Positions 23,222 to 62,861 of a stretch of 64,000 bases of DNA are shown here, piece after piece; within the stretch, counting starts at the first letter, position 1, and the number at the start of each line of letters is the position of its first letter. The notes beneath the pieces were generated by a model that did no database searches, had not been told where the DNA came from, and saw nothing but the letters and a program-made list of their open reading frames with translations. Location of the stretch: NCBI RefSeq assembly GCF_013375555.1, contig NZ_JABXWB010000005.1:1129501-1193500 (forward strand), written 5' to 3'. The stretch is from Sphingobium sp. EM0848. Lineage in GTDB: Bacteria; Pseudomonadota; Alphaproteobacteria; Sphingomonadales; Sphingomonadaceae. A program made the translations under genes and the position numbers.

Positions 23222-23246
23222 CCAATATCTGACGGGAGAGAAAGAC

Positions 23247-43909: not shown

Positions 43910-45046
43910 CTATAATCGGGCCGCTACCCAGTCGGCAATGAAGCTGCGCACCGGTTCGATATTGTCCACGCCGGTATGTTCGATGCCGCCTTCATGGGGG
44001 GTGAAGACCTTCAGTTCCCGTTCTGGACTGTTCACGGCTTCCTCAAAACTTTCATAGGCATATTCCAGCGGAATCTGGCGATCGTTCTCGCCATGGGTGA
44101 TGAGAAAAGGAACGGTCATGTTCTGAAGATGTCCGCGCAAGGTGATGTGGCTGCAATTGGCCAGCAGCAATTCGCCGGAGGCTTCTCCCCAGACCCAGGC
44201 GACATGGTCCCAATAATGGGGGACCGGACGGTCGCCTTCCCGCGCTGCGCGGCGATGCTGAAGCGCGCCCCAGTCATGGTTCGCGCCCCAAGCCACGCAG
44301 AGCTTGAATCTCTTTTCGTAGCAGGCCGCGCGCGGCGCATAATAGCCCCCCAGCGACCAGCCCGCCATACCGATCCGGTTCGCCACGACATCGGGGCGCG
44401 ATTCCAGATAGTCGATCGCTGCGCCTGCCCATCTTTCACTGTCATGGATGGCGGTCAGGCCGTTGAATCGCAGGGCTCCCCCTGTGCCCGGTTGATCGAT
44501 CATGAGCAGCGCGATGCCGCGTCTGGCAAAGGCATGGCGGTTGACGAGGAAAATCATCTCCTTCACGCTGTCCAGGCCGTTGCAGAACAACAGGCAGGGC
44601 CAGGGTCCCGGACCGTCTCCGGGCAGGAACAGGGCGGGCAGGCTGCTTCCTTCATAGGGGATATCCATGGCCTCGCAGGGAATGTTCCCGGTGCGGATCA
44701 TGGCGTCGCGGACCTCCAGCATTTGGGCATAGGCCCGTTTGCGGGGCTCATAGTCGCGGGCCTGCATCCGTTCGGCGGTCATGTAATAGGCTAGGGAGCG
44801 ACCGTATTTTTCGCTGGCGGTGAGGCCGTTTCCAGCGGCCTCCGCCGCCTTGCCTTGTTCCGCAAGACGCTTGGCCAAAGCCATCCAGGCGTTGAAAAAC
44901 GCCTCGGTGCCGACATCTTCGCCCTGCGTGGCGGCCTTGCGCACCGGGGTATTGGCTTCCTCGATCTCGCCGATGGCGCCGCCCATGGCCAGGCAGATAT
45001 TGACCGAAAGATTCCAGACATAATTGCCGGGAAACGGTTCGAACAT
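43910..45046 (-). CDS. Alpha/beta hydrolase, DHPON hydrolase/FrsA-like C-C hydrolase
   Basis: A 378-aa hydrolase with a helical N-terminal domain (about 1-140) and an alpha/beta catalytic domain. The nucleophile serine is in GMAGWSLGGYYAPRA, the acid/histidine lie in THGENDRQIP and GGIEHTG. This two-domain layout is that of FrsA/DUF1100 and 2,6-dihydroxypseudooxynicotine hydrolase, which cuts a C-C bond next to a ketone on an aromatic ring. It lies 48 nt downstream of the FAD monooxygenase on the same strand and opposite a TonB receptor, so a role in degrading an imported compound is likely. The substrate is unknown. Confidence 0.75.
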   Translation of the reverse strand: MFEPFPGNYVWNLSVNICLAMGGAIGEIEEANTPVRKAATQGEDVGTEAFFNAWMALAKRLAEQGKAAEAAGNGLTASEKYGRSLAYYMTAERMQARDYEPRKRAYAQMLEVRDAMIRTGNIPCEAMDIPYEGSSLPALFLPGDGPGPWPCLLFCNGLDSVKEMIFLVNRHAFARRGIALLMIDQPGTGGALRFNGLTAIHDSERWAGAAIDYLESRPDVVANRIGMAGWSLGGYYAPRAACYEKRFKLCVAWGANHDWGALQHRRAAREGDRPVPHYWDHVAWVWGEASGELLLANCSHITLRGHLQNMTVPFLITHGENDRQIPLEYAYESFEEAVNSPERELKVFTPHEGGIEHTGVDNIEPVRSFIADWVAARL

Positions 45047-45094
45047 GATGATAGCTCCTGTTGAAAAGGGGAAATACCGAACCGGGCCGGGTTG

Positions 45095-46213
45095 TCAGAT
45101 CGGCTGGCGTATCAGTTCGAATGCCGCGCGGGTGACGCCGATGTGGTCGGCATTGGGGGATCGTTCGATTTCCCAGCGGCACAACTGTTCCGACCATTGC
45201 TTGATCTTGCTGGCGCGGGGCAGGCGGCGATCCATGAAGGCCCGGAATGCAGTGGCGAGGTCGATATCCCTGCCGAGTTCCTCGCCCAGCACCACGGCAT
45301 CCTCTATCGCCATCGCCCCGCCTTGCCCCAGATGGGCGCTGGAGGCATGGGCAGCGTCGCCGATGATGATGACCCGTCCCTTGTGCCAGGGGGGCGGAAG
45401 GTCGACGAGCAGGAAGGGTTTCCAGACGATTTCTTCCGCAGGGGGAAGGTCATCCCGCAACTTGCCGATCAGCCCGCCATAGCCGGCGAGCTTGGTCCGC
45501 AACACCTCACGCAGGTCGCCTGCTGGCCGAACCGGTGTTTCGGTCTTGTCGGTCACATACATGTACATGACTGTATCGCTGAGCGGCACCACGCCTGCCC
45601 GGTCGCCATTCTCGCCGGTATAGCTTTGCAGTTCATCGACCTGACGGGGATAATTGACGCGCCATGCCGCCTGGCCGCTATAATAGGGTTCGGCGATGGT
45701 TCCGAACAGCAATTTGCGGGTGACAGAATGGATGCCGTCGGCGCCGATCACCGCATCATAGCGCCCCTTGCGTCCATCGGTGAAAATAACGTCCACACCG
45801 TCTGCGTCCTGAACCAGATCGGTGATAGTGCAATTGTTCCAGATGGTCGCCCCTGCGCCGACCGCGGCTTCGGTGAGGATGCGGCCATAGTCGGGCCGGG
45901 TGATCCCCATCATCGAGGGGTAGTCTGCTCCCGCGATCAGATCGCCTTGCAGGAAAGTGCGATTCTGCCCCTGCGAGTCAAAGAAGGCGAAGCCGTCATA
46001 GGCATAGCCTTTCTTGCGGATTTCCCCGAAAATGCCGAGTGCGTCGAGCGCACGCAATGCATTACCTTGCAGGATGATGCCGATTCCCAGCACGGCATCG
46101 GTCTGATATTTTTCCGCGACATCCACTTCTGTGCCGTGTCTTCGCAATGCGATCGCGACGGAAAGTCCGCTGATCCCACCGCCCACCACCAGAACCTTGC
46201 CGACACTGCTCAC
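45095..46213 (-). CDS. FAD-dependent aromatic hydroxylase (salicylate hydroxylase type)
   Basis: A 372-aa group A flavin monooxygenase. The ADP-binding GGGISGLSVAIALRRHG, the middle DG motif DAVIGADGIHS and the FAD-ribityl motif IIIGDAAHASSAHLGQGG are all present. These enzymes hydroxylate phenols with NAD(P)H and O2. It is the first gene of a two-gene unit with the alpha/beta hydrolase and is divergent from the TonB-dependent receptor. Confidence 0.87.
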   Translation of the reverse strand: MSSVGKVLVVGGGISGLSVAIALRRHGTEVDVAEKYQTDAVLGIGIILQGNALRALDALGIFGEIRKKGYAYDGFAFFDSQGQNRTFLQGDLIAGADYPSMMGITRPDYGRILTEAAVGAGATIWNNCTITDLVQDADGVDVIFTDGRKGRYDAVIGADGIHSVTRKLLFGTIAEPYYSGQAAWRVNYPRQVDELQSYTGENGDRAGVVPLSDTVMYMYVTDKTETPVRPAGDLREVLRTKLAGYGGLIGKLRDDLPPAEEIVWKPFLLVDLPPPWHKGRVIIIGDAAHASSAHLGQGGAMAIEDAVVLGEELGRDIDLATAFRAFMDRRLPRASKIKQWSEQLCRWEIERSPNADHIGVTRAAFELIRQPI

Positions 46214-46601
46214 CTGATTTCTCCTCTACCCAATGACCGATTATCCTGATCAGTTATTGCTGCGAGCCTAGGGCAGTTGCCTGACGCGCTGAAATAGACG
46301 CTTGGAATGCGAGGTATCGGGTTTGGCAATTGATGATCTTTAATAATTTAACATATTGATATTAAGCTATAAAATTGAAATTTCGTCGACTTTGCCGCCG
46401 TTGGCATCGCCTGAGCGAATGCGAGCTATAGGTACAATATATTGGTGACTGTGTTGGTCGGCTGTCATCCCTCATGCCTGCATCGACCCATGATGGTGCA
46501 CCCCCTGCTTTTGCCATCATGGAAGAAGAAAATGAAACGCCATGGCGCAAACAGGCGCCAGCCATGGAAGGAGAGGGGCGCCGAGAGGGAGAGGATTTGT
46601 G
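46214..46601. other. Divergent promoter region of cassette B import genes
   Basis: A 388-nt gap between the flavin monooxygenase (minus) and the TonB receptor (plus). The middle is AT-rich; TTAATA (46340-46345) and TATTAA (46360-46365) form a loose inverted repeat that could be an operator. The half next to the receptor contains GAAGGAGAGGGGCG but no further gene. Confidence 0.35.
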
Positions 46602-48815: not shown

Positions 48816-48829
48816 TCAACAAGGATGAA

Positions 48830-48856
48830 GAAGGCCGGGATGATGTCCCGGCCTTC
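48830..48856 (+). terminator. Terminator after the TonB receptor gene
   Basis: GAAGGCCGGGA (48830-48840) and TCCCGGCCTTC (48846-48856) make a perfect 11-bp stem with a 5-nt loop, 15 nt after the stop. The following bases are CTGTTG, so the T tract is weak. Confidence 0.7.
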
Positions 48857-48879
48857 CTGTTGCCGTAGGAGAAAAACGG

Positions 48880-49269
48880 GTGGAGGAATATAGCATCGAC
48901 GGCGTGATCGCTGCGGAACGGAGGCGTGGCGAGGCGCTGGTGCAGCAGGATTATGACAGCCTGCGCGCGATGATCTCACGCACGGTCACGCATACGCACA
49001 CGCGCGGCGTGACTGACGATTTCGACAGCTATTTCTGTTACATTGAGGGAGAGTTGACCTTTTTGGAGGTGACGCGCGGGCCGCTCGACGTCCGCCTGTT
49101 CGGGGATGCGGCGGTGATGAGCGGGGAGATGAGCAATCTGCTGTCGCTCAAGGGTAGGGCCGAACCCATATTGTCCCGCTCTCTGGTGTTGCAGGTCTGG
49201 GCCTGGCGGGGAGGGCGCTGGATACAGGAAGCCTTTCAGTCCACTAGCCTGCCGGAAACGCAGATATGA
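48880..49269 (+). CDS. NTF2-like/SnoaL-type protein
   Basis: A 129-aa NTF2-fold protein with a GTG start preceded by GGAGAAA. The cone-shaped fold is suggested by DYDSLRAMISRTVTHTHTRG, FLEVTRGPLDVRLFGDAAVM and the final strand WIQEAFQSTSLP. Members include small isomerases, hydratases and ligand-binding proteins. Its stop overlaps the next gene start (ATGA), so it works with the amidohydrolase. Confidence 0.65.
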   Translation: MEEYSIDGVIAAERRRGEALVQQDYDSLRAMISRTVTHTHTRGVTDDFDSYFCYIEGELTFLEVTRGPLDVRLFGDAAVMSGEMSNLLSLKGRAEPILSRSLVLQVWAWRGGRWIQEAFQSTSLPETQI

Positions 49270-50336
49270 ACGCTATCGGCGGCGCGGTGCTGCACCGTTG
49301 CGGCATGGCCGATTATCCCGTTCGTGTGGGCACGCCGGTCACGCGGCTGCCGTGGACGACCATCGACCTGCATTGCCACCTCGCCGTTCCAGCGGTGGAA
49401 GCGCTGGTGGCGAACCATCCGGATCGGACCGCGCGGGCGGTGGCTGAAGCCGAAGCGATGGGCGCGGCTTCTCTGGCGGTCAATGCCGCGATGATGGCCG
49501 ACCTGATGCCGCGTCTGACCGATGTGTCGGTGCGGCTTGCCGACATGGATGCGATGGGGGTGGATATCCAGGCGATCAGCCCTTCGCCCACGCAATATCA
49601 TTATTGGGCCGAGAAGGATCTGGCACGCACCGTCGTCGGCAGGATCAATGATGGAATTGCGGCCCTGTGCGCCGATCACCCGGATCGCTTCGTCGGGCTG
49701 GGCACGGTTGCGCTCCAGCATCCCTCGCTTGCCGCGCAGCAGCTGGAAAGCGCGATGCGCGACCATGATTTCAAGGGCGTGGAGATTTCCTCGCTCGCCG
49801 GCGGGCGCGACATTGCCGATCGCTTCTTCGATCCTTTCTGGCAAAAGGCCGATGAACTGGGTGCGGTGGTGTTCATCCACCCCTGGGGCACGACGCTGGG
49901 CACGCGGCTGGCCGATCATTATCTGATGAACACCATCGGCCAGCCTTTCGAAACCACGGTCTGCCTTTCCAAGCTGATCTTCGGCGGTACGCTGGATCGC
50001 CATCCCGGCGTGAAGATCATCGCCGCGCATGGCGGCGGCTATCTGCCTGCCTATGCCGGGCGATCGGACCATGCCCATGCGGTGCGGCCTGAGGCGCAGG
50101 GCTGCTCCTGCCGCCCCACCGACATATTGCGCCGCATCTGGTTCGACAGTCTGGTCTACGATCCCCGGCAATTACGGCGCCTGATCGAGGAGGTGGGCAT
50201 CGACCGGGTCGTGCTGGGCAGCGACTATCCCTTTGACATGGGGGATTATGATCCGGCCGGCCTGCTGGCGGACCTTGCAGAAGAGGATCAGCGCCGGATA
50301 CTGGGGGAGAATGCCCGGACCTTGCTGAACCTGTAA
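49266..50336 (+). CDS. ACMSD-type amidohydrolase (decarboxylase/hydrolase)
   Basis: A 356-aa TIM-barrel amidohydrolase_2. Metal ligands are in DLHCHLA, a histidine in VFIHPWGTT, IIAAHGGGYLPAY, and the aspartate in VLGSDYPFDMG. This subfamily contains nonoxidative decarboxylases of aromatic acids (ACMSD, gamma-resorcylate, carboxyvanillate) and some hydratases. Reaction is likely decarboxylation or hydrolysis of a ring-cleavage intermediate. Translationally coupled to the NTF2-like gene. A second relative occurs at 53519-54583. Confidence 0.8.
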   Translation: MNAIGGAVLHRCGMADYPVRVGTPVTRLPWTTIDLHCHLAVPAVEALVANHPDRTARAVAEAEAMGAASLAVNAAMMADLMPRLTDVSVRLADMDAMGVDIQAISPSPTQYHYWAEKDLARTVVGRINDGIAALCADHPDRFVGLGTVALQHPSLAAQQLESAMRDHDFKGVEISSLAGGRDIADRFFDPFWQKADELGAVVFIHPWGTTLGTRLADHYLMNTIGQPFETTVCLSKLIFGGTLDRHPGVKIIAAHGGGYLPAYAGRSDHAHAVRPEAQGCSCRPTDILRRIWFDSLVYDPRQLRRLIEEVGIDRVVLGSDYPFDMGDYDPAGLLADLAEEDQRRILGENARTLLNL

Positions 50337-50366: not shown

Positions 50367-51398
50367 TTAGACTTCCGGCTTTCCAAGCGGGGCGAAGGGG
50401 CGGTGCAGTACCGCATCTTCGTCCGTCCTTTCCACACGGCAGGGCACGATCTGCTCGCCCAGCCCCTGAATCGCTCCCCGCATTACATCGCCGTCGCGCA
50501 GGAAGCGGTTATAATGGGTTCCGTTGCCTGCCGGCGAACCTGTGCAGATAATGTCTCCGGGCATTAGCTGGATGTGAGTGGAAAGAAATTCGATCAGCCG
50601 GGGAATGCGGAAGATCATGTCCGCGCTCGCTTCATCCTGCATCACCTGCTCGTCCAGCCGCAACGTGATTTGCAGGTCGTGCGGATCGGGGATCAGCGCT
50701 GTGGGGACGATGAGCGGACCCAGCGGCAGGAAGCCGGGACAGGATTTGCCCGCGATGAAATCCAGCCCCATGCCGGGAATATCCGGCCGCGTGATATGAT
50801 CGCGCGCGCTGATGTCATTGGCGATCGTATAGCCCGCGACATGATCCATTGCCCGTTCGCGCGTCACGCGGCGCGCCGGGCGGCCGATGACCACCGCAAG
50901 TTCCAGTTCCCAGTCGGTCTGGATGCTGTCGGCGGGAATGGTGAGGGGGTCATAGGGCCCCGCGAGCGCCGAAATGGGCTTCACAAAGGCGAAGGGCGAA
51001 CCGGCCTGGGCACGATGGTCCATCAGTCGGGTGGCCCGTATGCGCCGCTCCGCCGCGTCAAGGCCCGGTTCGCTACCCGCCTCATGATCGGTCATGATGT
51101 CGATGACATGGCGCCGGTAATTGGCGCCCGCGCATAATATCTGGCGCGGTTGGACCGGCGGCAGCGTGCGCAGGCCGGAGAGCGCGATGCCCCGTTCGCC
51201 GCTGCTGCGGATGGCGGCGACACGCTGCTCCAACTCCGGCCACACCTCGGTCCAGCGCTCGAACAGATCGACGGTGTCGGCCTTGCCTGCGCTGGCGATC
51301 GGATAGGCGGCGCCATCGACCACGAGCGCCACGAAGGGGGCGGCGCCCTCTTGTACGAAGCGGCCGATGCCCACGGCCGGAAATTGCATGTTCGTCAT
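50367..51398 (-). CDS. Fumarylacetoacetate hydrolase-family protein
   Basis: A 343-aa FAH-fold enzyme. The core has ILCAGANYRRHVIDI, WELELAVVIGRPARRVTRE, GYTIANDISARDHI and the end IICTGSPAGNGTHY; the acidic metal ligands sit in the ELELAVVIG strand. The family includes 2-keto-4-pentenoate hydratases, acylpyruvases and C-C hydrolases acting after ring cleavage. GGAGG six bases before the ATG at 51398 fixes the start; a frame to 51497 is longer but unsupported. Divergent from the NmrA-like gene across 216 nt. Confidence 0.82.
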   Translation of the reverse strand: MTNMQFPAVGIGRFVQEGAAPFVALVVDGAAYPIASAGKADTVDLFERWTEVWPELEQRVAAIRSSGERGIALSGLRTLPPVQPRQILCAGANYRRHVIDIMTDHEAGSEPGLDAAERRIRATRLMDHRAQAGSPFAFVKPISALAGPYDPLTIPADSIQTDWELELAVVIGRPARRVTRERAMDHVAGYTIANDISARDHITRPDIPGMGLDFIAGKSCPGFLPLGPLIVPTALIPDPHDLQITLRLDEQVMQDEASADMIFRIPRLIEFLSTHIQLMPGDIICTGSPAGNGTHYNRFLRDGDVMRGAIQGLGEQIVPCRVERTDEDAVLHRPFAPLGKPEV

Positions 51399-51614
51399 GA
51401 TGCCTCCTCCTGCACGATGGCTAGGGCGGCGGGGCAGGGCGTACCAATCACCAGATGGGATGGCTACCATTGGCGGGCCCGATGGCCGATCCATCAACTC
51501 ATCCTATAGGTCCTATCCGATTTTGCGTTTTCTATCGCGTACCAGCCGGGCCTAGAGCATGGGCAGGTAAGGATGGAGGGGGCTGGAAACCCCTCCACGT
51601 CGGAGGAGGCACAT

Positions 51615-52499
51615 ATGACAGGCGGCCCAATTTTCCTTAATTGTGCAGGCAGTCGCACACAGGGCGCTGTCATGGACGCGTTGCAGGCGCGCGGGGCGGC
51701 GTTCCGCGCTTATGGCCGTTCGCTCGATCCGGTGGCGATGGCAGCGCGGGGTGCCAGCGAGGTGATCGAGGGCAGTATGCTCGATATTGAGGCGCTTGCG
51801 GAAGGCATGGAGGAAGCCGCTACCGTGATCCATGTCGCGCCTGCCCTGCAGGACAAGGAGGTGGCGATGGGCCAGTTCGCCGTCGATGCCGCCCGCCGTG
51901 CCGGGATCGGCCATTTCATCTATATTTCGGTGATCCATCCCCAGATCGAATATCTGATGAACCATCGCGCCAAGCTGGCGGTGGAAGATTATCTGATCGG
52001 TTCGGGCCTGCCCTTCACCATTCTGCGACCGATGCATTATTTCCAGAATATCGACGTTGCGGCGGCAATAGAGACCGGGCGCATGCAACTGACCTATTCG
52101 GTCGAACAATCGCTGGGTTTTGTCGACATGGCCGATGTGGGCGAGGTGGTCGCAAGGGTCGCGACCGAGGAAGGGCATGATTATGCCACCTATGACCTGT
52201 GCGGGCCGCAGCATCTGACCGGTATGGAGATGAGCATGATGCTGACCCGGCTTGCGGGACGGGAGGTCCTCCCGGTGCGGATTCCACTCGACCGGCTGGT
52301 GCAGATGCTGGCGCCGGTTCTGGCGTCGGACGCGGTGTCGATCGACTGGACCGCGAGCGCGATCGAGCGGCTGTTCCTCTATTATGACCGCTTCGGGCTC
52401 AACGGGAACGCCAATGTGCTGCGCTGGCTATTGGGTCGGGAGCCCGGCACCTTCCTCGACTTTGCCCGCCTCCAGATCGCCCGTTCCGGCGGGCGCTAG
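51615..52499 (+). CDS. NmrA-like NAD(P)-binding protein
   Basis: A 294-aa Rossmann protein with a somewhat changed glycine loop (LNCAGSRTQGAVM), FIYISVIHPQIEYLMNH, and LPFTILRPMHYFQN, as in the NmrA/atypical SDR group. Members act as redox sensors or NAD(P)H-dependent reductases. GGAGGAGG before the ATG sets the start. The last 72 nt overlap the convergent LysR gene. Confidence 0.78.
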   Translation: MTGGPIFLNCAGSRTQGAVMDALQARGAAFRAYGRSLDPVAMAARGASEVIEGSMLDIEALAEGMEEAATVIHVAPALQDKEVAMGQFAVDAARRAGIGHFIYISVIHPQIEYLMNHRAKLAVEDYLIGSGLPFTILRPMHYFQNIDVAAAIETGRMQLTYSVEQSLGFVDMADVGEVVARVATEEGHDYATYDLCGPQHLTGMEMSMMLTRLAGREVLPVRIPLDRLVQMLAPVLASDAVSIDWTASAIERLFLYYDRFGLNGNANVLRWLLGREPGTFLDFARLQIARSGGR

Positions 52500-54616: not shown

Positions 54617-55798
54617 TCAGAGTCTCTCGAAAATCGCGGCGATGCCTTGTCCGCCGCCGATGCACATGGTGGCCAGGCCATGGCGGCCGCCGCTGCGATG
54701 CAGCTCGTGGATCAATTTGGCGGCGATGATTGCGCCGGTCGCGCCCACCGGATGGCCGAGCGAAATGCCGCTGCCATTGGGATTGACCCGTGCCGGGTCG
54801 AGGTCCAGTTCCCTTGCCACGGCGCAGGCCTGCGCGGCGAAGGCTTCATTGGCCTCAATCACGTCGATGTCTTTTGTCTTTAGACCGGCACGTTTCAGTG
54901 CAATGCGGCTGGCGGGCACCGGGCCGATGCCCATCAGCGACGGCGGCACACCCGCATGGCCATAGGAGACAAGCCGCGCCAGCGGCGTCAGGCCCTTCCG
55001 TTTCACCATGGCCTCGCTGGCGAGGATCAGCGCGGCGGCGCCGTCATTGATGCCGGACGCATTGCCGGCGGTCACCGTGCCCTTCTCCTTCCGGAAGATC
55101 GGTTTCAGGCTGGCAAGGCTTTCGGGGCTGGCATCATGACGGACATGTTCGTCGATATCGAACAGCGCGGGCTTGCGCTTCACCATCAACTCTATGGGCA
55201 GGATTTGTTCGCGAAAACGACCCTCGGCAATGGCGGCGGCGGCGCGCTGTTGGCTGGTGAGCGCCAGCGCATCCTGTTCCTCGCGCGAGATGCCGTAGCG
55301 GTTGGCAACATTTTCCGCCGTAATGCCCATCAGCACCTTGTCGAAGGGATCGGTCAGCGCGCCGTTCAGCCCGTCCACTAATGCGCAATCGCCCATTTTC
55401 TGTCCCCAGCGCACCGCCGGGGCGAAGAAGGCGGCGCGGCTCATCACTTCCGTGCCGCCGGCCAACGCCGCTTCATAATCGCCGAGCATCAGGCCCTGCG
55501 CAGCCGAGACAATCGCTTGTAGACCGGAACCGCACAGCCGGTTGACGGTGAGTGCGGGCGCATTTTCGGGAACGCCCGCGTGCATCGCCGCCACTCGCGC
55601 GACATAGGCATCCGCGGGTTCGGTCGGGATCACCTGACCGAAGATGCTATGGCCGATGGCGCCGGCTTCCAGCCCGCTGCGCCGGATCGCTTCGGCGGCG
55701 ACAAGGCCGCCGAGTTCCGCCGGGCGAAAGCCGCTGAGGCTGCCGCCGAAAGTGCCGATCGCGGTACGGACGGCGGAAACGATATAGACGCCGGTCAT
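54617..55798 (-). CDS. Acetyl-CoA C-acyltransferase (thiolase)
   Basis: A 393-aa degradative-type thiolase. C89 in NRLCGSGLQ is the nucleophile, H349 in SLGHPVGATG and C379 in MCIGGGQG complete the site. It removes acetyl-CoA from 3-ketoacyl-CoA. The start overlaps the stop of the upstream SDR by ATGA, so they form an operon; an upstream frame to 56023 is inside that SDR. Confidence 0.93.
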   Translation of the reverse strand: MTGVYIVSAVRTAIGTFGGSLSGFRPAELGGLVAAEAIRRSGLEAGAIGHSIFGQVIPTEPADAYVARVAAMHAGVPENAPALTVNRLCGSGLQAIVSAAQGLMLGDYEAALAGGTEVMSRAAFFAPAVRWGQKMGDCALVDGLNGALTDPFDKVLMGITAENVANRYGISREEQDALALTSQQRAAAAIAEGRFREQILPIELMVKRKPALFDIDEHVRHDASPESLASLKPIFRKEKGTVTAGNASGINDGAAALILASEAMVKRKGLTPLARLVSYGHAGVPPSLMGIGPVPASRIALKRAGLKTKDIDVIEANEAFAAQACAVARELDLDPARVNPNGSGISLGHPVGATGAIIAAKLIHELHRSGGRHGLATMCIGGGQGIAAIFERL

Positions 55799-56673
55799 GC
55801 CGTCACGCCGGACTTGCGGATTTCCCACTGGAACTGATCGAAGCCGGTTGCCGGGATGACTTCGCCATCGCGGTCGGCAACCTGGTCGAGACGATCGGCA
55901 AGGGCGGTGGCCACATCTTCGCCTTCGCCCAGATATATGCCCCGCGTCATGGTGATGTTCGCCTGTTCGAAGCTGCCCGCTCCGGCGAGCAGGATGCGAC
56001 GCGTCGGCGCGTCCCGGCCGCACAGCGCCACCACCGCCGGGCTCACCAGATCGGGCGACAGCCGGGCGAAATCATCGTCGGAAAAGATCGTCTCGGTCAT
56101 GCCTGTCGCGGCGCTGGGCGCAAGGCAGTTGACGTGGATGCCGTAACGCTCGCCCTCTAGTGCTAGCGTCTGCATCAGGCCCACCAACCCCATTTTCGCT
56201 GCGCCATAGTTGGACTGGCCGAAATTGCCGTAAAGGCCTGAAGATGATGTGGTGAAGACGATTCGCCCAAAACCCTGCGTGCGCATCTGGTCCCACACCG
56301 CCTTGGCGCAGATCGCTGCCCCCATCAGGTGGATCTCCAGTACCAGCCGGAAATCGGCGAGGTCCATCTTGGCGAAGCTCTTGTCGCGCAGGATGCCCGC
56401 ATTGTTGACGAGGATATCGACGGAACCCCAGCGGTCGGTCGTGGCCGTGACCATCGCGGCGACGGCCGTTTCGTCCGTGACATTGGCGGCAAAAGGCATG
56501 GCCTCGCCTCCCGCGGCGGTGATCTCCTTCGCGACACGGGTGGCGGCCTCCTCCGACAGATCGTTCACCACCGCCCGCGCGCCGTGGCGGGCGAGTGCCA
56601 GCGCATGCGAGCGGCCAAGGCCCCCCCCTGCTCCAGTGACGATGGCGGTAAGGGGGGAAAGGGACAAGGTCAT
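55795..56673 (-). CDS. SDR dehydrogenase, MFE-2/(3R)-hydroxyacyl-CoA type
   Basis: A 292-aa classical SDR. The NAD loop is VTGAGGGLGRSHALALA, NNAG is at the fourth strand and the catalytic S and YxxxK are in TSSSGLYGNFGQSNYGAAK. The RSHALALARHGA and C-terminal GEVIPATGFDQ fit the dehydrogenase domain of multifunctional enzyme 2, acting on 3-hydroxyacyl-CoA. AGGAG precedes the ATG. Coupled to the thiolase by overlap, so the pair would carry a side-chain beta-oxidation. Confidence 0.87.
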   Translation of the reverse strand: MTLSLSPLTAIVTGAGGGLGRSHALALARHGARAVVNDLSEEAATRVAKEITAAGGEAMPFAANVTDETAVAAMVTATTDRWGSVDILVNNAGILRDKSFAKMDLADFRLVLEIHLMGAAICAKAVWDQMRTQGFGRIVFTTSSSGLYGNFGQSNYGAAKMGLVGLMQTLALEGERYGIHVNCLAPSAATGMTETIFSDDDFARLSPDLVSPAVVALCGRDAPTRRILLAGAGSFEQANITMTRGIYLGEGEDVATALADRLDQVADRDGEVIPATGFDQFQWEIRKSGVTA

Positions 56674-56726: not shown

Positions 56727-57503
56727 TCAGATGATGGTGAAGCCGCCATCGACGGCGAGAATCTGGCCGGTGATATGCCCGCCCGCGTCCGAAGCAAAGA
56801 GCAACGCAGCGCCCTTCATATCCTCCTCGCCGCCGAGTTTGCCGAGCGGGGTCTGGCCGGCAAGGGTATCGCCATGGGCATCGAGTACGGCATAGGTCAT
56901 CTTCGACGGGAAATAGCCCGGTGCGATGGCATTGACGCGCACGCCGCGCGGCCCCCATTCGGCGGCCAGCGCGCGGGTTATGTTCACCACCGCGCCCTTG
57001 GAGGCGTTATAGGCTATGGTTCCGGGACGCGACCAGTGATGGCCCATCAGTCCTTCGATGGAGGCGATATTGATCACCGCGCCCTTGCCTTGCGGTAGGA
57101 AACAGTCGCGGCCCACCGCCTGCGTCAGGCGGAAGAGGGCGGTGACATTGAGGTGGATCACCTTGTCCCACCCGTCCTCCGGATAGGTTTCGGCTGGGGC
57201 GCCCCATGTTGCGCCCGCATTGTTGACGAGAATGTCGATACGGCCATAGGTTTCGCGCACCGCCGTTACCAATGCTTCGGCGGCGCCCGGCGCGCCGAGA
57301 TCGGCGGGGAAGGGCAGCGCCTCCACCCCAAGGGCGGCAAGGCGGGCAACGGCGCCGTCAAGATCGGTCGCCTTGCGCGCCACCAGCGCCAGCTTCGCGC
57401 CATATTCGCCCAACGCCTCGGCGATCTGCAATCCCAGCCCGCGCGATGCGCCGGTGACGACCGCTACCCTGCCGCTCAGGTCGAACAATCGGGTCAGGCT
57501 CAT
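56727..57503 (-). CDS. SDR-family oxidoreductase
   Basis: A 258-aa classical SDR: VVTGASRGLGLQIAEALG, NNAGATWG, IASIEGLMGHHWSRPGTIAYNASKGAVV with the catalytic tyrosine and lysine, and the end GQILAVDGGFTII. Most like gluconate 5-dehydrogenase/FabG-type enzymes. The ATG at 57503 has AGGGAAA upstream and is preferred over one at 57518. First gene of the minus-strand catabolic operon, 53 nt before the next SDR. Confidence 0.87.
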   Translation of the reverse strand: MSLTRLFDLSGRVAVVTGASRGLGLQIAEALGEYGAKLALVARKATDLDGAVARLAALGVEALPFPADLGAPGAAEALVTAVRETYGRIDILVNNAGATWGAPAETYPEDGWDKVIHLNVTALFRLTQAVGRDCFLPQGKGAVINIASIEGLMGHHWSRPGTIAYNASKGAVVNITRALAAEWGPRGVRVNAIAPGYFPSKMTYAVLDAHGDTLAGQTPLGKLGGEEDMKGAALLFASDAGGHITGQILAVDGGFTII

Positions 57504-57788
57504 ATTTCCCTGCCCCATGGCCGGTCGGTTCTACTGGTCATCTGCTCCGTTCCTCCCTTTTTGGCTTTAGCCTGTCTTGCTAGTCCCAAGGGCAGAGAGA
57601 GGAAAATCGCCAATCATGATTGGATGCATAACCGCCAGCCATATCTGCTGCCCGCGGGAACATAGGCGAGGGCGATAGGACCCATAACATCTCTCGATTT
57701 TTCCGCCGCGATAGCCCCTCCCTACACTCCCTTCCTGAAAATCGCCCCGCGAGGCGGCGGCTCCCGTCGATATTCAAGGAGAGGGTTT

Positions 57789-58724
57789 GTGCGGAAAGTC
57801 ATCATCACATGCGCAGTGACGGGATCGGTTCATACGCCGTCCATGTCGCCTTATTTGCCCAAGACGCCCGACGAGATTGCCGATGCTGCGATCGGCGCGG
57901 CGCAGGCCGGAGCGGCGATCGTCCATCTGCATGCCCGCAACCCGGAAACCGGCGAGCCGAGCCAGGACCCGGCGCTTTTCTCCCGTTTCCTGCCACGTAT
58001 CGCGCAGGAATGCGGCGCGGTGATCAACATCACCACGGGCGGCGCGGCGACCATGACCATAGAAGAACGGTTGCGTCCCGCTTTGACCTTCAAGCCGGAG
58101 ATCGCCTCGCTGAACATGGGGTCGATGAACTTCGTGCTTTATGAGATGCTGGACCGGTTCAAGACGTTCCAACATGCATGGGAAGACCCTTTCCTGCGTC
58201 ATTCGGATCAGAATATCTTCCGCAATAGCTATCGCGATATCGAGCACATTCTGCGTAGCTGCGGTGATCAGGGAACGCGGTTCGAGATCGAATGCTATGA
58301 TGTCAGCCATCTCTACACCGCCGCCCATTTCCGGGACAGGGGCCTTTTGACCGGGCCGATCTTCCTCCAGACCGTGTTCGGCATCCGGGGCGGCATCGGC
58401 GCGCATTATGAGGATGTGGCGATGATGAAGCGCACCGCCGACCGGCTTTTCGGCCCGGACGATTATGTCTGGTCCGTGCTGGGTGCCGGGCGCAACCAGA
58501 TGCCGTTGTCGACGATATCGGCGGCTCTGGGCGGCAATGTCCGTGTGGGTCTTGAGGATTCGCTATGGGGCGAGCCGCGCCAGTTGGCGAAGAGCAATGC
58601 CGAGCAGGTGACGAAGATCCGCACCATATTGGAGGCGCTCTCGCTGGAGATCGCGACGCCTGAGGACGCGCGGCGGATGCTGCAACTCAAGGGATCGACC
58701 GATGTGGGGGCAACGTCATGGTGA
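57789..58724 (+). CDS. Beta-keto acid cleavage enzyme (BKACE, DUF849)
   Basis: A 311-aa TIM-barrel enzyme that condenses a beta-keto acid with acetyl-CoA to give acetoacetate and a new CoA ester. The zinc site HLHARNPETG, NITTGGAATMT, PEIASLNMGSMNF and GNVRVGLEDSLW are the family hallmarks. It starts with GTG preceded by GGAGAG, and overlaps the lactonase gene by 7 nt. Members differ in substrate (3-keto-5-aminohexanoate, dehydrocarnitine, beta-keto glutarate); which one here cannot be told. Confidence 0.88.
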   Translation: MRKVIITCAVTGSVHTPSMSPYLPKTPDEIADAAIGAAQAGAAIVHLHARNPETGEPSQDPALFSRFLPRIAQECGAVINITTGGAATMTIEERLRPALTFKPEIASLNMGSMNFVLYEMLDRFKTFQHAWEDPFLRHSDQNIFRNSYRDIEHILRSCGDQGTRFEIECYDVSHLYTAAHFRDRGLLTGPIFLQTVFGIRGGIGAHYEDVAMMKRTADRLFGPDDYVWSVLGAGRNQMPLSTISAALGGNVRVGLEDSLWGEPRQLAKSNAEQVTKIRTILEALSLEIATPEDARRMLQLKGSTDVGATSW

Positions 58725-59755
58725 TGATCCGTGAGGGACGCGGCCCCAATCCGCTCAAGGGCTTCACCGTCGATCCCGCCGACATCCATTTCGTCGGCAA
58801 GGATTTGCAACGCCCCGAATGCATCCTTGCCGAGCGTGATGGCACGCTCTGGTCGGCCGACGCGCGGGGCGGGCTGATGCGCATCGCGCCTGATGGCAAG
58901 CAGCAGCTTATCACGCAGGAGGTGGACGGCCATTTCGACCTGTCCGGCGATGCGGCGCAGAGCCTGCTGTTCGGCACATTGCCCAATGGTCTCGCCTTTG
59001 CGCGCAACGGCGACATATTGATCTCCAATTTCGGTAACGACCGGCTGGAACGTATGACCCGCAGCGGAGAAACCCGGGTGCTGGCCGACAGCATCGACGG
59101 CAAGCCGCTGGGTAAGGTCAATTTCGTGTTGCGCGACAGCAAGGACCGCATCTGGGTGACGATTTCCACGATGGTCAATCCGTGGAGCGACGCCACGCGT
59201 CTGGGGCTGGCCGATGGCTATATCGCCCTGCTTGACGAAAAGGGGTTTCGTATCGTCGCAGACGGCTTCGCCTTTACCAATGAGATCCGGCTCGATGTGA
59301 AGGAGGAGTGGCTCTATGTCGCGGAAACGACTGCCAAGCGCGTGTCGCGTCTGCGGGTCCAGCCCGACGGATCGCTGATCGACCGCGAGATATTCGGGCC
59401 GGACAATCTGGGTAGCGGGGTGGTCGACGGCATCTGCTTCGACGCCTATGGCAATCTCTGGGCGGCAATGATCCTGGCCGACCGGCTGATCGCCATTACC
59501 CCCGATGGCGAGGTGCTGACGCTTCTCGACGATGGCAATGCGCAGGCGACGGCGGCTTTCGAAGCCGAATTTGCAAGCGGTAATATAGTGAAGTTCGAAA
59601 CGATGATGCAATGCGGCGGCACGTTGGCGCCATGGATGGCGAGCATCACCTTCGGCGGGCCGGACCTTTCAACTGTCTATCTTGGCAGCCTGCGTGGTAA
59701 CAGGCTGCCCGCCTTCCGCTCGCCGGTGGCGGGCCTGCCGATGGTGCACTGGTAA
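58718..59755 (+). CDS. SMP-30/gluconolactonase-family lactone hydrolase
   Basis: A 345-aa six-bladed propeller hydrolase. Seen are RPECILAERDGTLWSADARGG, GLAFARNGDILISNFGNDR, GFAFTNEIRLDVKEEWLYV and GVVDGICFDAYGNLWAAM, with metal ligands E, N and D expected in these loops. These enzymes open lactones. It is translationally coupled to the BKACE gene and followed by an SDR, so a lactone intermediate is likely in the pathway. Confidence 0.85.
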   Translation: MVMIREGRGPNPLKGFTVDPADIHFVGKDLQRPECILAERDGTLWSADARGGLMRIAPDGKQQLITQEVDGHFDLSGDAAQSLLFGTLPNGLAFARNGDILISNFGNDRLERMTRSGETRVLADSIDGKPLGKVNFVLRDSKDRIWVTISTMVNPWSDATRLGLADGYIALLDEKGFRIVADGFAFTNEIRLDVKEEWLYVAETTAKRVSRLRVQPDGSLIDREIFGPDNLGSGVVDGICFDAYGNLWAAMILADRLIAITPDGEVLTLLDDGNAQATAAFEAEFASGNIVKFETMMQCGGTLAPWMASITFGGPDLSTVYLGSLRGNRLPAFRSPVAGLPMVHW

Positions 59756-59759
59756 TATC

Positions 59760-60494
59760 ATGGACCTGTCAGGCAGGAATATTCTCGTCACCGGCGGCGG
59801 CGCAGGCATAGGGCTGGCGCTTGCCCGCGCGCTGCACGCCAAGGGTAACAGGGTCATCATCTGCGGGCGCGATGAAGCGCGTCTGGGCGAGGTTGTAAGG
59901 GAGACGCCGGGTCTGATACCCGTGCGCGCCGATGTCGCGACAGCGGCGGGGCGTGATGCGCTGCTGGCCGATGCACTGGCTCGGCTGCCGGACCTCGACA
60001 TGCTGGTCAACAATGCAGGCATCCAGCGTCGCGCAAAATTTCATGCGGACGCTGCCGATTGGACGGAGCGTGCGCAGGAAATAGCGATCAATTTCGAGGC
60101 GCCGGTGCATCTGGCGGCGTTGTTCCTGCCTCATTTCCTCGCTTGTCCCGGTGCGGCAATCGTCAATGTGAGTTCTGGGCTGGCCTTCCTGCCGGTGACC
60201 TTCGCGCCGGTCTATGCCGCGACCAAGGCGGCGCTGCACAGCTTCACCATCGCGCTGCGCGACGATCTGCGTGGTACCAGGGTGAAGGTGGCGGAGATTA
60301 TTCCGCCAATGGTCAATACCGGGCTGGGTGGGCAGGGACTCCATGTCGCGGGTGTGCCGGTCGATATCTTCGTCAAGGCAGTGGTTGATCGCCTCGCCGC
60401 TGGAGAGTTGGAGATTGGCTATGACATGTCCGAGAAATTCCGCACCGCTAGCCGAGAAGAGCTGGCAGGGATACTCGCACAGCTAAACGGCTGA
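59760..60494 (+). CDS. SDR-family oxidoreductase, DltE-like
   Basis: A 244-aa SDR. VTGGGAGIGLALARALHAKG, NNAGIQRRA, SSGLAFLPVTFAPVYAATKAALHSF with the catalytic serine, tyrosine and lysine, and a C-terminus PMVNTGLGGQG typical of the DltE-like subgroup. The ATG at 59760 follows the lactonase stop by 4 nt. Ends the plus-strand operon. Confidence 0.85.
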   Translation: MDLSGRNILVTGGGAGIGLALARALHAKGNRVIICGRDEARLGEVVRETPGLIPVRADVATAAGRDALLADALARLPDLDMLVNNAGIQRRAKFHADAADWTERAQEIAINFEAPVHLAALFLPHFLACPGAAIVNVSSGLAFLPVTFAPVYAATKAALHSFTIALRDDLRGTRVKVAEIIPPMVNTGLGGQGLHVAGVPVDIFVKAVVDRLAAGELEIGYDMSEKFRTASREELAGILAQLNG

Positions 60495-60552
60495 GGTCCG
60501 GCAGTTCGTCTGGGGACAGTTGTCAGGAGAACGCCACCAATCATCAGTCCCA

Positions 60553-60601
60553 ATATGAATATCCGGCCGCTTTCCTAAGGAAAGCGGCCGGATATTCATA
60601 T
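60553..60601. terminator. 49-bp perfect palindrome between convergent genes
   Basis: A 24-bp left arm (60553-60576) is the exact reverse complement of the right arm (60578-60601), with only A60577 between. The core is CCGGCCGCTTTCC and its complement. Position between the convergent SDR and monooxygenase genes supports a bidirectional terminator, though the near-absence of a loop is unusual. Confidence 0.7.
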
Positions 60602-60618
60602 GTAACCTTCCAATGCGA

Positions 60619-61818
60619 TCAGCGCGGGGACAGGAGATATTGTCCCAGTCCCTGGAACATGCTGTCATATTTGAGCGCACCATGATTGGTGACCGCATGC
60701 AGGTCGCGCCAGTGCCGACTGATCGCATTGCGTGTGTCGAGGCCTCGTCCGCCAGCCTGATAGAATAGGCGTTCGCCCGCCCGCGTGAGCGTTTTGGCGG
60801 CAAAGCCCATCGCCCCGCGACAGCGCAGGATCGCATCGGGCGTCTTCATCCCGCCCCTTAGGATCAACTCGTCGAAACGCTCCATCAGCGCATGGACGGC
60901 CGTGATCTCGGCTTCGGCTTCGCCCACGCCCGATTGCAGATAGGGATCGTCCGCGAGGCGGCCGGGCACCAACAGCCCTTCGCGCGTGCGGTTGAAGCCG
61001 GTGATCGCTTCCTGCAAGGCGCGTGCGATCGCATACATGGGGCCGATCAGCCCATAGGGGAACTGGCCCATCGGCGGGCTGCTGAACAGGGGATGGGTGT
61101 GGCCGCTGACCGCCGTGCCGACATCGCCGATCCCATAGCCGGCGATGTCCAGCGTATAGGCGTCTTCGATCAACGCATCCTTCACCAGCACATTGTTCGA
61201 TCCGCTTCCGGCGAGACCGACGCTGTGCCAAACATCCTTCACCTCGAACTGGCCGGGCTTCAGCAGGAACCAGTGATTGGCGCGCGGCACGCCGTCGCCC
61301 TTGCCGACAAACCCTGATAGGATCACCCAGTCGCAATTGTCGACACCGGAAGAGAAGGACCATTCGCCCGAAAGCCGCAGCCCGCCGGGGACCGGCTCTG
61401 CCCGTCCGCAGGGGGCGAACATCGACGCGATACGGGGATCGCTGGCCTGGCTGTAGACCTCATCCTGCGCCTCTTTGGGGAAGAAAGCGAGCGCCCATTG
61501 ATGGTGCAGAATGAAGCCCAGCACCCAGGCGAGTGAGCCGGATTGCGCCGCCAGCGGAACCAGCGCGTCGGTGAAGGCCATCCAGCCCAGTTCATAGCCG
61601 CCATAGCGCGCGGGCCGCACCAGCGGCATCAGTCCGGAAGCGACCAGTGCATCGACGGCGGCGCGGGGCACGCGCCGGTCCCGCTCGGTCTCCTCGACAT
61701 AACGGGCTATGTCCCCGGCGAGATCATAGGCGAGGTCGACACATTGCGCGGGCGTAGGAATATTGCCCGGCGGGCTGAGCGTGGCGAGATTCTGGGGAGG
61801 ATTGACCATGACCGGCAT
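60619..61818 (-). CDS. Flavin-dependent monooxygenase, HsaA-like, second copy
   Basis: A 399-aa oxygenase with the acyl-CoA dehydrogenase fold: VRPARYGGYELGWMAF, SGSLAWVLGFILHHQWALAFF, RLSGEWSFSSGVDNCDWVILSG and the end NHGALKYDSMFQGLGQYL. It is the same family as 23247-24440 but clearly divergent. It should ortho-hydroxylate a phenol with reduced flavin. AGGAA before the ATG at 61818 supports the start. It lies 26 nt downstream of an extradiol dioxygenase, in the same operon. Confidence 0.85.
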   Translation of the reverse strand: MPVMVNPPQNLATLSPPGNIPTPAQCVDLAYDLAGDIARYVEETERDRRVPRAAVDALVASGLMPLVRPARYGGYELGWMAFTDALVPLAAQSGSLAWVLGFILHHQWALAFFPKEAQDEVYSQASDPRIASMFAPCGRAEPVPGGLRLSGEWSFSSGVDNCDWVILSGFVGKGDGVPRANHWFLLKPGQFEVKDVWHSVGLAGSGSNNVLVKDALIEDAYTLDIAGYGIGDVGTAVSGHTHPLFSSPPMGQFPYGLIGPMYAIARALQEAITGFNRTREGLLVPGRLADDPYLQSGVGEAEAEITAVHALMERFDELILRGGMKTPDAILRCRGAMGFAAKTLTRAGERLFYQAGGRGLDTRNAISRHWRDLHAVTNHGALKYDSMFQGLGQYLLSPR

Positions 61819-61844
61819 CCATTTCCTTCAAAGAGATGTTGAGG

Positions 61845-62861
61845 TCAGTCCTCGGCGGCGGCGAGGTTGGGACGGCGCTGCACGCTTCCCTTGGACGGGG
61901 CGGAGCCTTCGGCGAAGCGCACGTCCCAATCGGCCCCGTCCCACCATTCCGGCAGATCATGCATCCAATGGGCCAGGCCGAACATCGGATCGAAATCACG
62001 CGGTATCCAGCCGTCGTCCAATGCGTCGGAATCGGCGCCATATTCGGCTTCGCCGCCAGCCGGGCAGGGGAAGTAGCAGAACAGCGCCGATGCGATGCGA
62101 TGGCGGCCGATGCCCAGATCCGATTTCGGCCAGCCGCGCCGTTCGATATAATTTTTCCCGGCCATGATTTCGTCGAGGTCCGTCACCGCGAAATTGGCGT
62201 GGTGGAAGCGAAGCTGGCCATCCATGCCGGGCAGGCCCGCATTGGCGTTGAGGAGCGCGATATTATGATGGTCGGTTACGCCATCGGCGCGGCAATAGAC
62301 GGCAAAATGGCGCTGGCGATCACTCAGTCGGAAATTGAGCCGGGTCTGGAGGAAATTTACCAGTCCTTCCAGATCGGGGGACAGCAGGCCGATATGGCTG
62401 ATCCCCTTGGGAAAGGCCCGCGCGATCCAGCGGCGATGCGCATTCATGCGGCGAATATTGCCCGGAGAATTGACCGGATCGGTCGGGGCGAACACCAGGC
62501 GCTTTTCGGACCAGTGACGCAGGCCCATTGCGATGCCCTCATCGGTGACGAAATGGGCTATGCCTTCTTCGTCGCGACGAACCTCGCGGTCGGTGGCGAT
62601 GCCTGTGACCAGCTTTTCGAGATTGTCGGCGCTATCGACGCCCCATATCAATTCATGCACACCTTGCCCGACGACGCGCGAACCCGGTACGGGATGGGTT
62701 GCCAGCGAACGAAAATAGACGCGTGAATTGTCGGGTAACTGGAAACGCGCTGAATCGGGGGTACGTTCTTGCGGGCTCAGGCCGAAATCCTCGAAGAACT
62801 GCGCGCTCTTTTCGACATCTTCGACACAATAGATCAGCCGCTCAATTCCGATGATTGCCAT
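61845..62861 (-). CDS. Type I extradiol dioxygenase, second copy
   Basis: A 338-aa two-domain ring-cleavage enzyme. The likely iron ligands are H156 (KGISHIGLL), H220 or H221 (RFHHANFAV) and a glutamate in GGEAEYGAD. It carries long tails and a C-terminal region (GWIPRDFDPMFGLAHWMHD) absent from the BphC-like enzyme of cassette A, so it belongs to a separate subgroup. GAGG seven bases before the ATG at 62861 sets the start. First gene of a two-gene operon with the monooxygenase that should make its catechol. Confidence 0.85.
   Translation of the reverse strand: MAIIGIERLIYCVEDVEKSAQFFEDFGLSPQERTPDSARFQLPDNSRVYFRSLATHPVPGSRVVGQGVHELIWGVDSADNLEKLVTGIATDREVRRDEEGIAHFVTDEGIAMGLRHWSEKRLVFAPTDPVNSPGNIRRMNAHRRWIARAFPKGISHIGLLSPDLEGLVNFLQTRLNFRLSDRQRHFAVYCRADGVTDHHNIALLNANAGLPGMDGQLRFHHANFAVTDLDEIMAGKNYIERRGWPKSDLGIGRHRIASALFCYFPCPAGGEAEYGADSDALDDGWIPRDFDPMFGLAHWMHDLPEWWDGADWDVRFAEGSAPSKGSVQRRPNLAAAED

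What the first reader, a model, noticed from the sequence alone, without database searches (positions are those of the whole stretch)
43910..62861. Cassette B: an apparently complete but unassigned ring-degradation system
Some 17 genes on both strands encode uptake (TonB receptor), hydroxylation (FAD and HsaA-like monooxygenases), extradiol ring cleavage, C-C hydrolysis (DHPON-hydrolase-like and FAH-fold enzymes), two ACMSD-type amidohydrolases, lactone opening (SMP-30), beta-keto acid cleavage (BKACE), two SDRs, NmrA-like protein, MFE-2-like dehydrogenase and thiolase, with a LysR regulator. I know of no named pathway with this combination, especially BKACE plus lactonase plus extradiol dioxygenase. 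The substrate is unknown.
Basis: partly seen in the sequence, partly recalled or inferred. Interest (0 to 1): 0.8.

Follow-up and report, generated by a model that had tools for sequence, protein, structure and literature searches.

The report
Gene cluster degrading ring-shaped plant phenolics
A bacterium carries 17 neighbouring genes that look like one pathway for taking in and dismantling a plant-type ring compound by a lower route I did not find described, and relatives share it in pieces; the substrate is still a prediction.

Summary
It is not a set of unrelated known pathways. Twelve of 16 tested cassette genes recur together in two genomes of one genus (one is Rhizorhabdus histidinilytica), seven in a Sphingomonas MAG. 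In 249 family genomes all 10 dioxygenase places at 46% identity or more, window included, have a BKACE gene within 6 kb; none of 10 more distant places does.

The upper part resembles A-ring cleavage of isoflavones (ifc) and naringenin (fde), where the ifc paper shows by NMR that a hydroxypyrone is left. My model: this cassette makes an analogous 4-hydroxy-2-pyrone, the SMP-30 lactonase opens it, BKACE cleaves the beta-keto acid with acetyl-CoA, and a hydroxyacyl-CoA dehydrogenase and thiolase finish. BKACE passes the NCBIfam 3,5-dioxohexanoate model and is 60% identical to an enzyme with that activity; the SMP-30 model matches lactonases and keeps an E-N-N-D site.

The substrate class (2-substituted chromone or flavonoid) is inferred. 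Ten searches of an open-access library found no pathway joining these steps. Verdict: real and conserved; a new lower-route variant of a known kind, untested in the lab.

The parts
43910..45046 (-). abH: alpha/beta hydrolase, DHPON-hydrolase/Ayg1-like; proposed retro-Claisen C-C hydrolase
   Evidence: best PDB hit 2JBW E 1.4e-22, next an Ayg1-like protein; S231, D322, H357 in 30 of 30 aligned sequences; AlphaFold pLDDT 94, no fold search obtained
45095..46213 (-). fadmo: FAD monooxygenase; proposed ring 8-hydroxylase
   Evidence: NF005313 395.8 bits over cut-off 372; 75% identical neighbour in L042
46542..48815 (+). TonB-dependent receptor
   Evidence: PF00593, PF07715; 71-77% over the part held in L021, L022, L041, median 34% in 14 of 27 BKACE-linked loci with a hit covering over 80%
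48880..49269 (+). small DUF4440 protein, the 17th gene
   Evidence: PF14534 E 1.6e-06, 28.9 bits over cut-off 25.2
49266..50336 (+). amh1: ACMSD-type Amidohydro_2 enzyme
   Evidence: PF04909; ACMSD structures, best E 1e-55
50367..51497 (-). fah: fumarylacetoacetate-hydrolase-fold enzyme (listed from TTG; true start may be internal)
   Evidence: PF01557; HpaG-type and acylpyruvase structures
51573..52499 (+). NmrA-like NAD(P)-binding protein
   Evidence: PF05368
52428..53435 (-). LysR regulator
   Evidence: PF00126, PF03466
53519..54583 (-). amh2: second Amidohydro_2 protein; N-terminus looks like a twin-arginine signal (by eye, no predictor run)
   Evidence: PF04909; sequence
54617..55798 (-). 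thl: BktB-like beta-ketothiolase
   Evidence: NF006552 646 bits over cut-off 565; BktB equivalog 629.6, below its 725
55795..56673 (-). sdr1: MFE-2-like (3R)-hydroxyacyl-CoA dehydrogenase, overlaps thl
   Evidence: best PDB hit 2ET6 (3R)-hydroxyacyl-CoA dehydrogenase, 358 bits
56727..57518 (-). sdr2: SDR oxidoreductase
   Evidence: NF006070 373 bits over 279
57789..58724 (+). bkace: beta-keto acid cleavage enzyme
   Evidence: NF053538 '3,5-dioxohexanoate:acetyl-CoA acetone transferase' 513.9 over 430; 60.3% (182 of 302) to BKACE15, 8RIO; H46, H48, R252, E256 in 21 of 21 aligned sequences
58718..59755 (+). smp30: SMP-30-fold lactonase, overlaps bkace
   Evidence: PF08450; model pLDDT 93, highest-ranked PDB matches are lactonases; E34, N135, N188, D237 in 22 of 22 aligned sequences
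59760..60494 (+). sdr3: SDR oxidoreductase
   Evidence: PF00106; 68% in L042
60619..61818 (-). HsaA-like two-component flavin monooxygenase, oxygenase part
   Evidence: NF045629 225.9 bits, below its cut-off 450; PF08028
61845..62861 (-). edo: VOC-type extradiol dioxygenase
   Evidence: H156, H221, E273 with H198, H199, H254, Y263 in 13 of 13 aligned sequences, the region aligns with BphC 1HAN

Best explanation
An aerobic catabolic unit for a benzopyran-type phenolic (a 2-substituted chromone, flavone or flavanone). Proposed order: uptake by the TonB receptor; hydroxylation of the A-ring next to an existing OH (FAD monooxygenase and/or HsaA-like); extradiol cleavage next to the carbon that bears the ring oxygen, so that this carbon becomes a lactone carbonyl; C-C hydrolysis by abH or by FAH/amh1, removing a C4 keto acid and leaving a 4-hydroxy-6-R-2-pyrone; opening by the SMP-30 lactonase to a beta-keto acid (3,5-dioxo or 5-hydroxy-3-oxo); BKACE plus acetyl-CoA giving acetoacetate and an acyl-CoA; sdr1 and thiolase finishing to acetyl-CoA units. 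Shown here: gene content, conserved linkage, intact active-site residues. Inferred: substrate, order, every reaction.
For: Isoflavone precedent: IfcA makes 8-hydroxydaidzein, IfcB is an FdeC-like VOC protein (65.8%), and NMR shows a later intermediate to be 2-hydroxy-5-(4-hydroxyphenyl)-4H-pyran-4-one, i.e. the C-ring left as a hydroxypyrone; the mass of an IfcD product fits pyrone + H2O - CO2, as an opened beta-keto acid would give (my reading). The 2-substituted analogue would be a 4-hydroxy-6-R-2-pyrone; with R = methyl its opened form is 3,5-dioxohexanoate. The BKACE passes that NCBIfam model and its 60% relative BKACE15 accepts 3,5-dioxohexanoate and 5-hydroxy-beta-ketohexanoate. BKACE and SMP-30 genes overlap and co-occur in 17 of 86 loci against 7.8 expected. 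Lactonase fold and putative metal residues. A cupin query (from L133, its kinship to IfcD unproven) hits 0 of 27 BKACE-linked but 15 of 59 other loci, as if cupin and BKACE were alternatives. Median identity to the window falls from SMP-30 74% (n 17), abH 62% (n 21), BKACE 59% (n 27) to dioxygenase 51% (n 27), monooxygenase 40% (n 21), TonB 34% (n 14), as expected if different substrates funnel into one lower route.
Against: In Variovorax, disrupting the DHPON-like hydrolase gene did not affect daidzein degradation, and the X2-to-X3 gene is unknown. Within the stretches held, BKACE is undetected in 59 of 86 related dioxygenase loci and SMP-30 in 10 of 27 BKACE-linked ones. The thiolase is not conserved with the cassette (1 of 86, a 44% hit in L062, which has no BKACE). 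The HsaA-like protein is in only 2 of 86. abH and FAH/amh1 rarely meet elsewhere (1 and 0 of 86), so having both is unusual; 10-kb flanks would have missed abH in the window itself. VanA-type O-demethylases occur in 11 of 27 BKACE-linked but also in 18 of 59 other loci, so they do not mark this route. The identity gradient has no housekeeping control, and the FMO hits may not be orthologues. No FdeC or IfcB sequence could be compared. No expression or growth data.
Confidence: 0.45

Rival explanations
1. The substrate is a monocyclic polyphenol (acyl- or alkyl-phloroglucinol or resorcinol type). Hydroxylation and extradiol cleavage give trioxo acids; hydrolases shorten them and the lactonase and BKACE handle triacetate-like products.
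For: Triacetate is the substrate of a BKACE-family lyase in anaerobic phloroglucinol degradation; FAH- and abH-type enzymes include C-C hydrolases (functions partly recalled).
Against: The nearest described set with the same FMO, VOC dioxygenase and DHPON-like hydrolase is a flavonoid cluster. Weak: position 14 of the BKACE is V/I/A/L in 21 of 21, not the Trp reported for the Clostridium lyase, but I matched the position by numbering, not by a printed alignment.
Confidence: 0.22
2. The block is two pathways side by side that share lower enzymes: an HsaA/FAH/amh module (as in Rhizorhabdus) and an FMO/abH module (as in Sphingomonas 67-36).
For: L021/L041 show the first without abH or FMO; L042 shows the second without FAH, amh or HsaA, within about 20 kb each; abH and FAH/amh1 are near-exclusive in relatives.
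Against: The genome has one match to this dioxygenase at E<=1e-30 and the cassette one BKACE and one SMP-30 gene; genes of the two modules interleave, and sdr2 is found with both.
Confidence: 0.2
3. A steroid- or terpenoid-ring pathway: HsaA-like hydroxylase, extradiol cleavage and beta-oxidation genes, linked to the KshA/HsaA-like cassette at 16.7-25.6 kb of the window.
For: HsaA-like protein, MFE-2-like dehydrogenase with thiolase; the other cassette has a BphC-type dioxygenase, HsaA-like and KshA-type genes.
Against: HsaA-like scores 225.9 against a cut-off of 450 and the dioxygenase 19.4 against 450 for HsaC; SMP-30 + BKACE have no role in the 9,10-seco pathway (recalled).
Confidence: 0.08

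Closest known systems
ifc isoflavone catabolism cluster, Variovorax sp. V35 (PMC11069340; sections 14-18 read, other parts as passages)
   Same: FAD monooxygenase, VOC dioxygenase of the FdeC type, DHPON-like alpha/beta hydrolase, A-ring cleavage leaving a hydroxypyrone
   Different: ifc acts on the pyrone with cupins IfcD1/D2; BKACE or SMP-30 are not mentioned in what I read (its gene table is in a figure not held). The cassette adds lactonase, BKACE, thiolase, FAH, two amidohydrolases and an HsaA-like gene
fde naringenin cluster, Herbaspirillum seropedicae SmR1 (known here only through passages in PMC11069340, PMC11303751, PMC8552027)
   Same: 8-hydroxylation then A-ring dioxygenation
   Different: FdeE is said to work with a Rieske protein FdeD; no Rieske protein is among the 17 cassette genes. 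Sequences not available to compare; BKACE/SMP-30 not mentioned in those passages
Anaerobic phloroglucinol pathway, Clostridium scatologenes (PMC10470551, passages incl. abstract)
   Same: A BKACE-family lyase cleaving triacetate
   Different: Starts with a reductase under anoxic conditions; no dioxygenase or lactonase among the enzymes described in the passages
BKACE15, Paracoccus denitrificans, PDB 8RIO (PMC11961710, passages)
   Same: 60% identity; nearly the same N-terminal motif; accepts 3,5-dioxohexanoate and 5-hydroxy-beta-ketohexanoate; its authors suspect a role in aromatic degradation from gene context
   Different: Physiological role unknown; no pathway assigned

Membership tests
ifc/fde-type flavonoid A-ring pathway | FAD 8-hydroxylase gene | tested here: inconclusive
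ifc/fde-type flavonoid A-ring pathway | FdeC/IfcB-like VOC dioxygenase with extradiol residues | tested here: inconclusive
   VOC extradiol residues intact; no protein named FdeC or IfcB among the 120 listed of 707 homologues, few of which carry a name
ifc/fde-type flavonoid A-ring pathway | IfcD cupin acting on the pyrone | tested here: not met
   No cupin family among the hits of the 17 cassette genes
ifc/fde-type flavonoid A-ring pathway | growth on or conversion of a flavonoid | not testable with these tools
   needs bench work
BKACE family | PF05853 match with conserved Zn and catalytic residues | tested here: met
   359 bits over 24.8; H46, H48, R252, E256, D257 in 21 of 21 (residue roles recalled)
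3,5-dioxohexanoate-cleaving BKACE | NCBIfam NF053538 above curated cut-off | tested here: met
   513.9 vs 430
Triacetate acetoacetate-lyase (TAL) of the phloroglucinol pathway | Trp in place of Glu14 of Kce | tested here: inconclusive
   Val14 in the window, V/I/A/L in 21 of 21, but the equivalence of position 14 rests on numbering, not on a printed alignment with Kce or CsTAL
SMP-30/gluconolactonase-like lactonase | beta-propeller with E-N-N-D metal site | tested here: met
   the four residues were matched by eye to DFPase E21/N120/N175/D229, which appear in entry titles
Steroid 9,10-seco (HsaA/HsaC) pathway | HsaA and HsaC equivalog scores | tested here: not met
   225.9 vs 450 and 19.4 vs 450

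The most novel reading that the evidence does not exclude
A previously undescribed aerobic route in which the C-ring left over from A-ring cleavage of flavone/flavanone/chromone-type compounds becomes a 4-hydroxy-2-pyrone, is opened by a dedicated SMP-30 lactonase and is cleaved by BKACE, giving BKACE a defined role in plant-phenolic catabolism. Among the loci examined, both genes sit with the dioxygenase in Alphaproteobacteria and one Pseudomonas, and BKACE without detected SMP-30 in Burkholderia/Paraburkholderia.
Probability: 0.4. Interest if true: 0.75.

Novelty: new variant of a known kind. Interest (0 to 1): 0.55.

Why it matters
BKACE genes are common in this family (93 of 249 genomes), and even a structurally studied one, BKACE15, has no known physiological role. 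A conserved dioxygenase-lactonase-BKACE unit would give one of them a job and would explain how bacteria finish off the pyrone that A-ring cleavage leaves. It makes a direct prediction: named intermediates (4-hydroxy-6-R-2-pyrone, 3,5-dioxo acid) that can be assayed. It also offers hydroxylases and dioxygenases for flavonoid-type compounds.

Tried and rejected
Rejected: chance clustering (linkage repeats in different genera). Rejected: plain HsaA/HsaC steroid cluster (scores far below cut-offs). Considered but not decided: TAL of the phloroglucinol pathway (pocket position differs by numbering only). Considered: mobile-element origin; in 40-64 kb there was no direct repeat family of 30 bases or more and two imperfect inverted pairs (74% and 76%), and no tRNA in the window; not pursued.

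Led nowhere: paper searches on chromone, triacetic acid lactone and BKACE with flavonoids found no pathway with this gene set (listings only). Eight plasmid records have relatives at 37-50%; I viewed two of the eight and their annotation names no pathway. In a phylum draw 12 of 398 genomes matched at E<=1e-30, the window's own included, the other 11 at 29-36%, so no fde or ifc cluster was placed. The protein search listed 120 of 707 homologues, none with a characterised name. The fold search for abH was never accepted because the machine was busy.

Limits: the 86-locus statistics use the 80 loci kept of 152 confirmed plus L021, L026, L029, L033, L133, L134. Some come from the same genome or near kin, so Fisher values overstate independence. 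Neighbours were counted only within about 10 kb and on contigs that may end. The match list is cut at its end, but for the genomes the listed BKACE numbers equal the per-genome counts. Gene calls in relatives come from my own simple ORF script and are approximate. The tree is the quick kind, with SH-aLRT support only.
Full report
WHAT IS THERE. The stretch 43,910-62,861 carries 17 genes on both strands. Families: alpha/beta hydrolase, FAD monooxygenase, TonB receptor, DUF4440 protein, Amidohydro_2 (amh1), FAH, NmrA-like, LysR, Amidohydro_2 (amh2), BktB-like thiolase, MFE-2-like SDR, two further SDRs, BKACE, SMP-30, HsaA-like monooxygenase and VOC dioxygenase. By strand they form seven runs; the longest are lysR-amh2-thl-sdr1-sdr2 (minus) and bkace-smp30-sdr3 (plus). 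BKACE and SMP-30 overlap by 7 bases, sdr1 and thl overlap, edo and hsaA are 26 bases apart.

IT IS A CONSERVED UNIT. Eighteen window proteins were compared with relatives, 16 of them from the cassette. In the MAG Sphingomonas sp. 67-36 (L042) seven lie together: sdr3, abH, FMO, SMP-30, BKACE, EDO, sdr2 at 61-87%. Between them every tested gene but the thiolase has a neighbouring relative, the LysR one being weak. In 249 family genomes the EDO is found in 15 at E<=1e-30, the window's own included. All 10 EDO places with identity of 46% or more (window included) have a BKACE within 5.9 kb; none of the 10 at 43% or less does.

TWO MODULE TYPES. A named-genome scan gave 152 relatives of which 80 were kept. 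Over 86 loci I found BKACE in 27, SMP-30 in 25, abH in 46, FAH in 16, amh1 in 14, FMO in 61. BKACE goes with SMP-30 (17, expected 7.8) and abH (22, expected 14.4). FAH goes with amh1 (12, expected 2.6). abH avoids FAH (1, expected 8.6) and amh1 (0, expected 7.5). On the EDO tree one clade of 27 holds 23 BKACE-linked rows; a clade of 13, none BKACE-linked, has FAH in 12 rows and amh1 in 11; the window sits with L021, L041, L042 and L043 on a long separate branch (SH-aLRT 99). The BKACE label needs 8 changes against 23.9 in shuffles. I read abH and FAH+amh1 as alternative solutions for the step after ring cleavage. The window carries both, so it may be a mosaic; with 10-kb flanks this could not have been seen in all relatives.

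WHAT THE ENZYMES CAN DO. EDO: residues in the region aligned with BphC (1HAN), at its metal and catalytic positions, are present in 13 of 13 (BphC roles recalled). SMP-30: an AlphaFold model with pLDDT 93 matches lactonase RPA3624, xylonolactonase, luciferin-regenerating enzyme and SMP30/GNL first in the PDB, and four putative metal residues are invariant in 22 of 22. By sequence alone its PDB hits are weak. abH: nearest solved structures are DHPON hydrolase and an Ayg1-like protein (Ayg1 as a C-C hydrolase is recalled), with Ser, Asp and His in 30 of 30. BKACE: above the curated cut-off of the 3,5-dioxohexanoate model and 60% identical to BKACE15, whose confirmed substrates include 3,5-dioxohexanoate and 5-hydroxy-beta-ketohexanoate (passages of PMC11961710). 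sdr1: closest to a (3R)-hydroxyacyl-CoA dehydrogenase.

MECHANISM. The isoflavone paper (PMC11069340; sections 14-18 read, other parts as passages) shows 8-hydroxylation by IfcA, a product of the X2 mass from 8-hydroxydaidzein with the FdeC-like IfcB (conversion incomplete), and an NMR-determined later product 2-hydroxy-5-(4-hydroxyphenyl)-4H-pyran-4-one. That is a tautomer of a 4-hydroxy-2-pyrone, so A-ring cleavage leaves the C-ring as a lactone. The masses agree: X2 is 8-hydroxydaidzein + O2, X3 is that + H2O - C4H4O4, and an IfcD product is X3 + H2O - CO2 (the mass reading is mine). For a compound substituted at C2 instead of C3 the same chemistry gives 4-hydroxy-6-R-2-pyrone, whose opened form is a 3,5-dioxo acid; for a 2,3-saturated ring, a 5-hydroxy-3-oxo acid. 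BKACE15 accepts a six-carbon acid of each kind; acids with an aryl R were not mentioned in what I read. This explains a lactonase next to BKACE, and a 3-hydroxyacyl-CoA dehydrogenase next to a thiolase. The identity gradient (SMP-30 74, abH 62, BKACE 59, EDO 51, FMO 40, TonB 34) fits varied uptake and hydroxylation feeding a shared lower route; I ran no housekeeping-gene control for it. A cupin query hits 0 of 27 BKACE-linked and 15 of 59 other loci, which fits two ways of dealing with the pyrone, but that query's kinship to IfcD is unproven.

AGAINST. Disrupting the DHPON-like gene did not affect daidzein degradation in Variovorax. SMP-30 is not detected in 10 of 27 BKACE-linked loci; a cyclase query (PF04199) hits 17 of 27 and may do a related job there, but no cyclase is in this cassette. 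VanA-type O-demethylases are in 11 of 27 BKACE-linked and 18 of 59 other loci, so they do not mark this route. The thiolase is not conserved. I could not compare with FdeC or IfcB sequences. Everything about the substrate is inference.

COMPARISON AND NOVELTY. It works like the ifc/fde A-ring pathways at the top, but I do not file it as a member: no IfcD-type cupin is present and the key sequences could not be compared. The lower route (lactonase plus BKACE) was not found in ten searches of the held open-access library; most subscription papers are not held, and I did not read the two original fde papers. New variant of a known kind.

Noticed in passing
window 16,698-25,560: Another ring-degradation cassette: acyl-CoA dehydrogenase, two acyl-CoA carboxylase subunits, BphC-type dioxygenase, HsaA-like monooxygenase and KshA-type Rieske oxygenase.
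   Followed up: partly
L128 4,914-19,489 (own genome, about 24-39 kb past the window's end): A second BKACE cluster: Amidohydro_2, FMO, VanA-type O-demethylase, zinc-type dehydrogenase, BKACE, VOC protein, acyl-CoA dehydrogenase, FAH, with TonB receptor and SDR by tblastn only.
   Followed up: partly
L130 8,739-15,786 (own genome): Third BKACE gene, between a class III CoA-transferase and a pyridine-nucleotide reductase, with aldehyde dehydrogenase and a TonB-receptor hit.
   Followed up: no
L021 and L041, L023, L102: Relatives' clusters contain Rieske VanA-type O-demethylases (L041's overlaps the dioxygenase gene) and, in L102, a two-subunit ring-hydroxylating oxygenase.
   Followed up: partly
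L133 (Novosphingobium aromaticivorans pNL2, record 17,637-42,656): Unnamed cluster with two large VOC proteins and one small one, two FAD monooxygenases, alpha/beta hydrolase, FAH, cupin and TonB receptor; a like layout (FMO, TonB, LysR, dioxygenase, FMO, dioxygenase, alpha/beta hydrolase, no BKACE) is in seven Novosphingobium loci: L100, L104, L109, L115, L117, L119, L120.
   Followed up: no
window 41,161-43,125: Acetate-CoA ligase beside the cassette (955 bits over 725); link to the cassette unknown.
   Followed up: no
window 13,564-14,565: Protein with domains DUF7685, DUF7686 and DUF7713, near an IS110-type transposase at 12,190-13,221.
   Followed up: no
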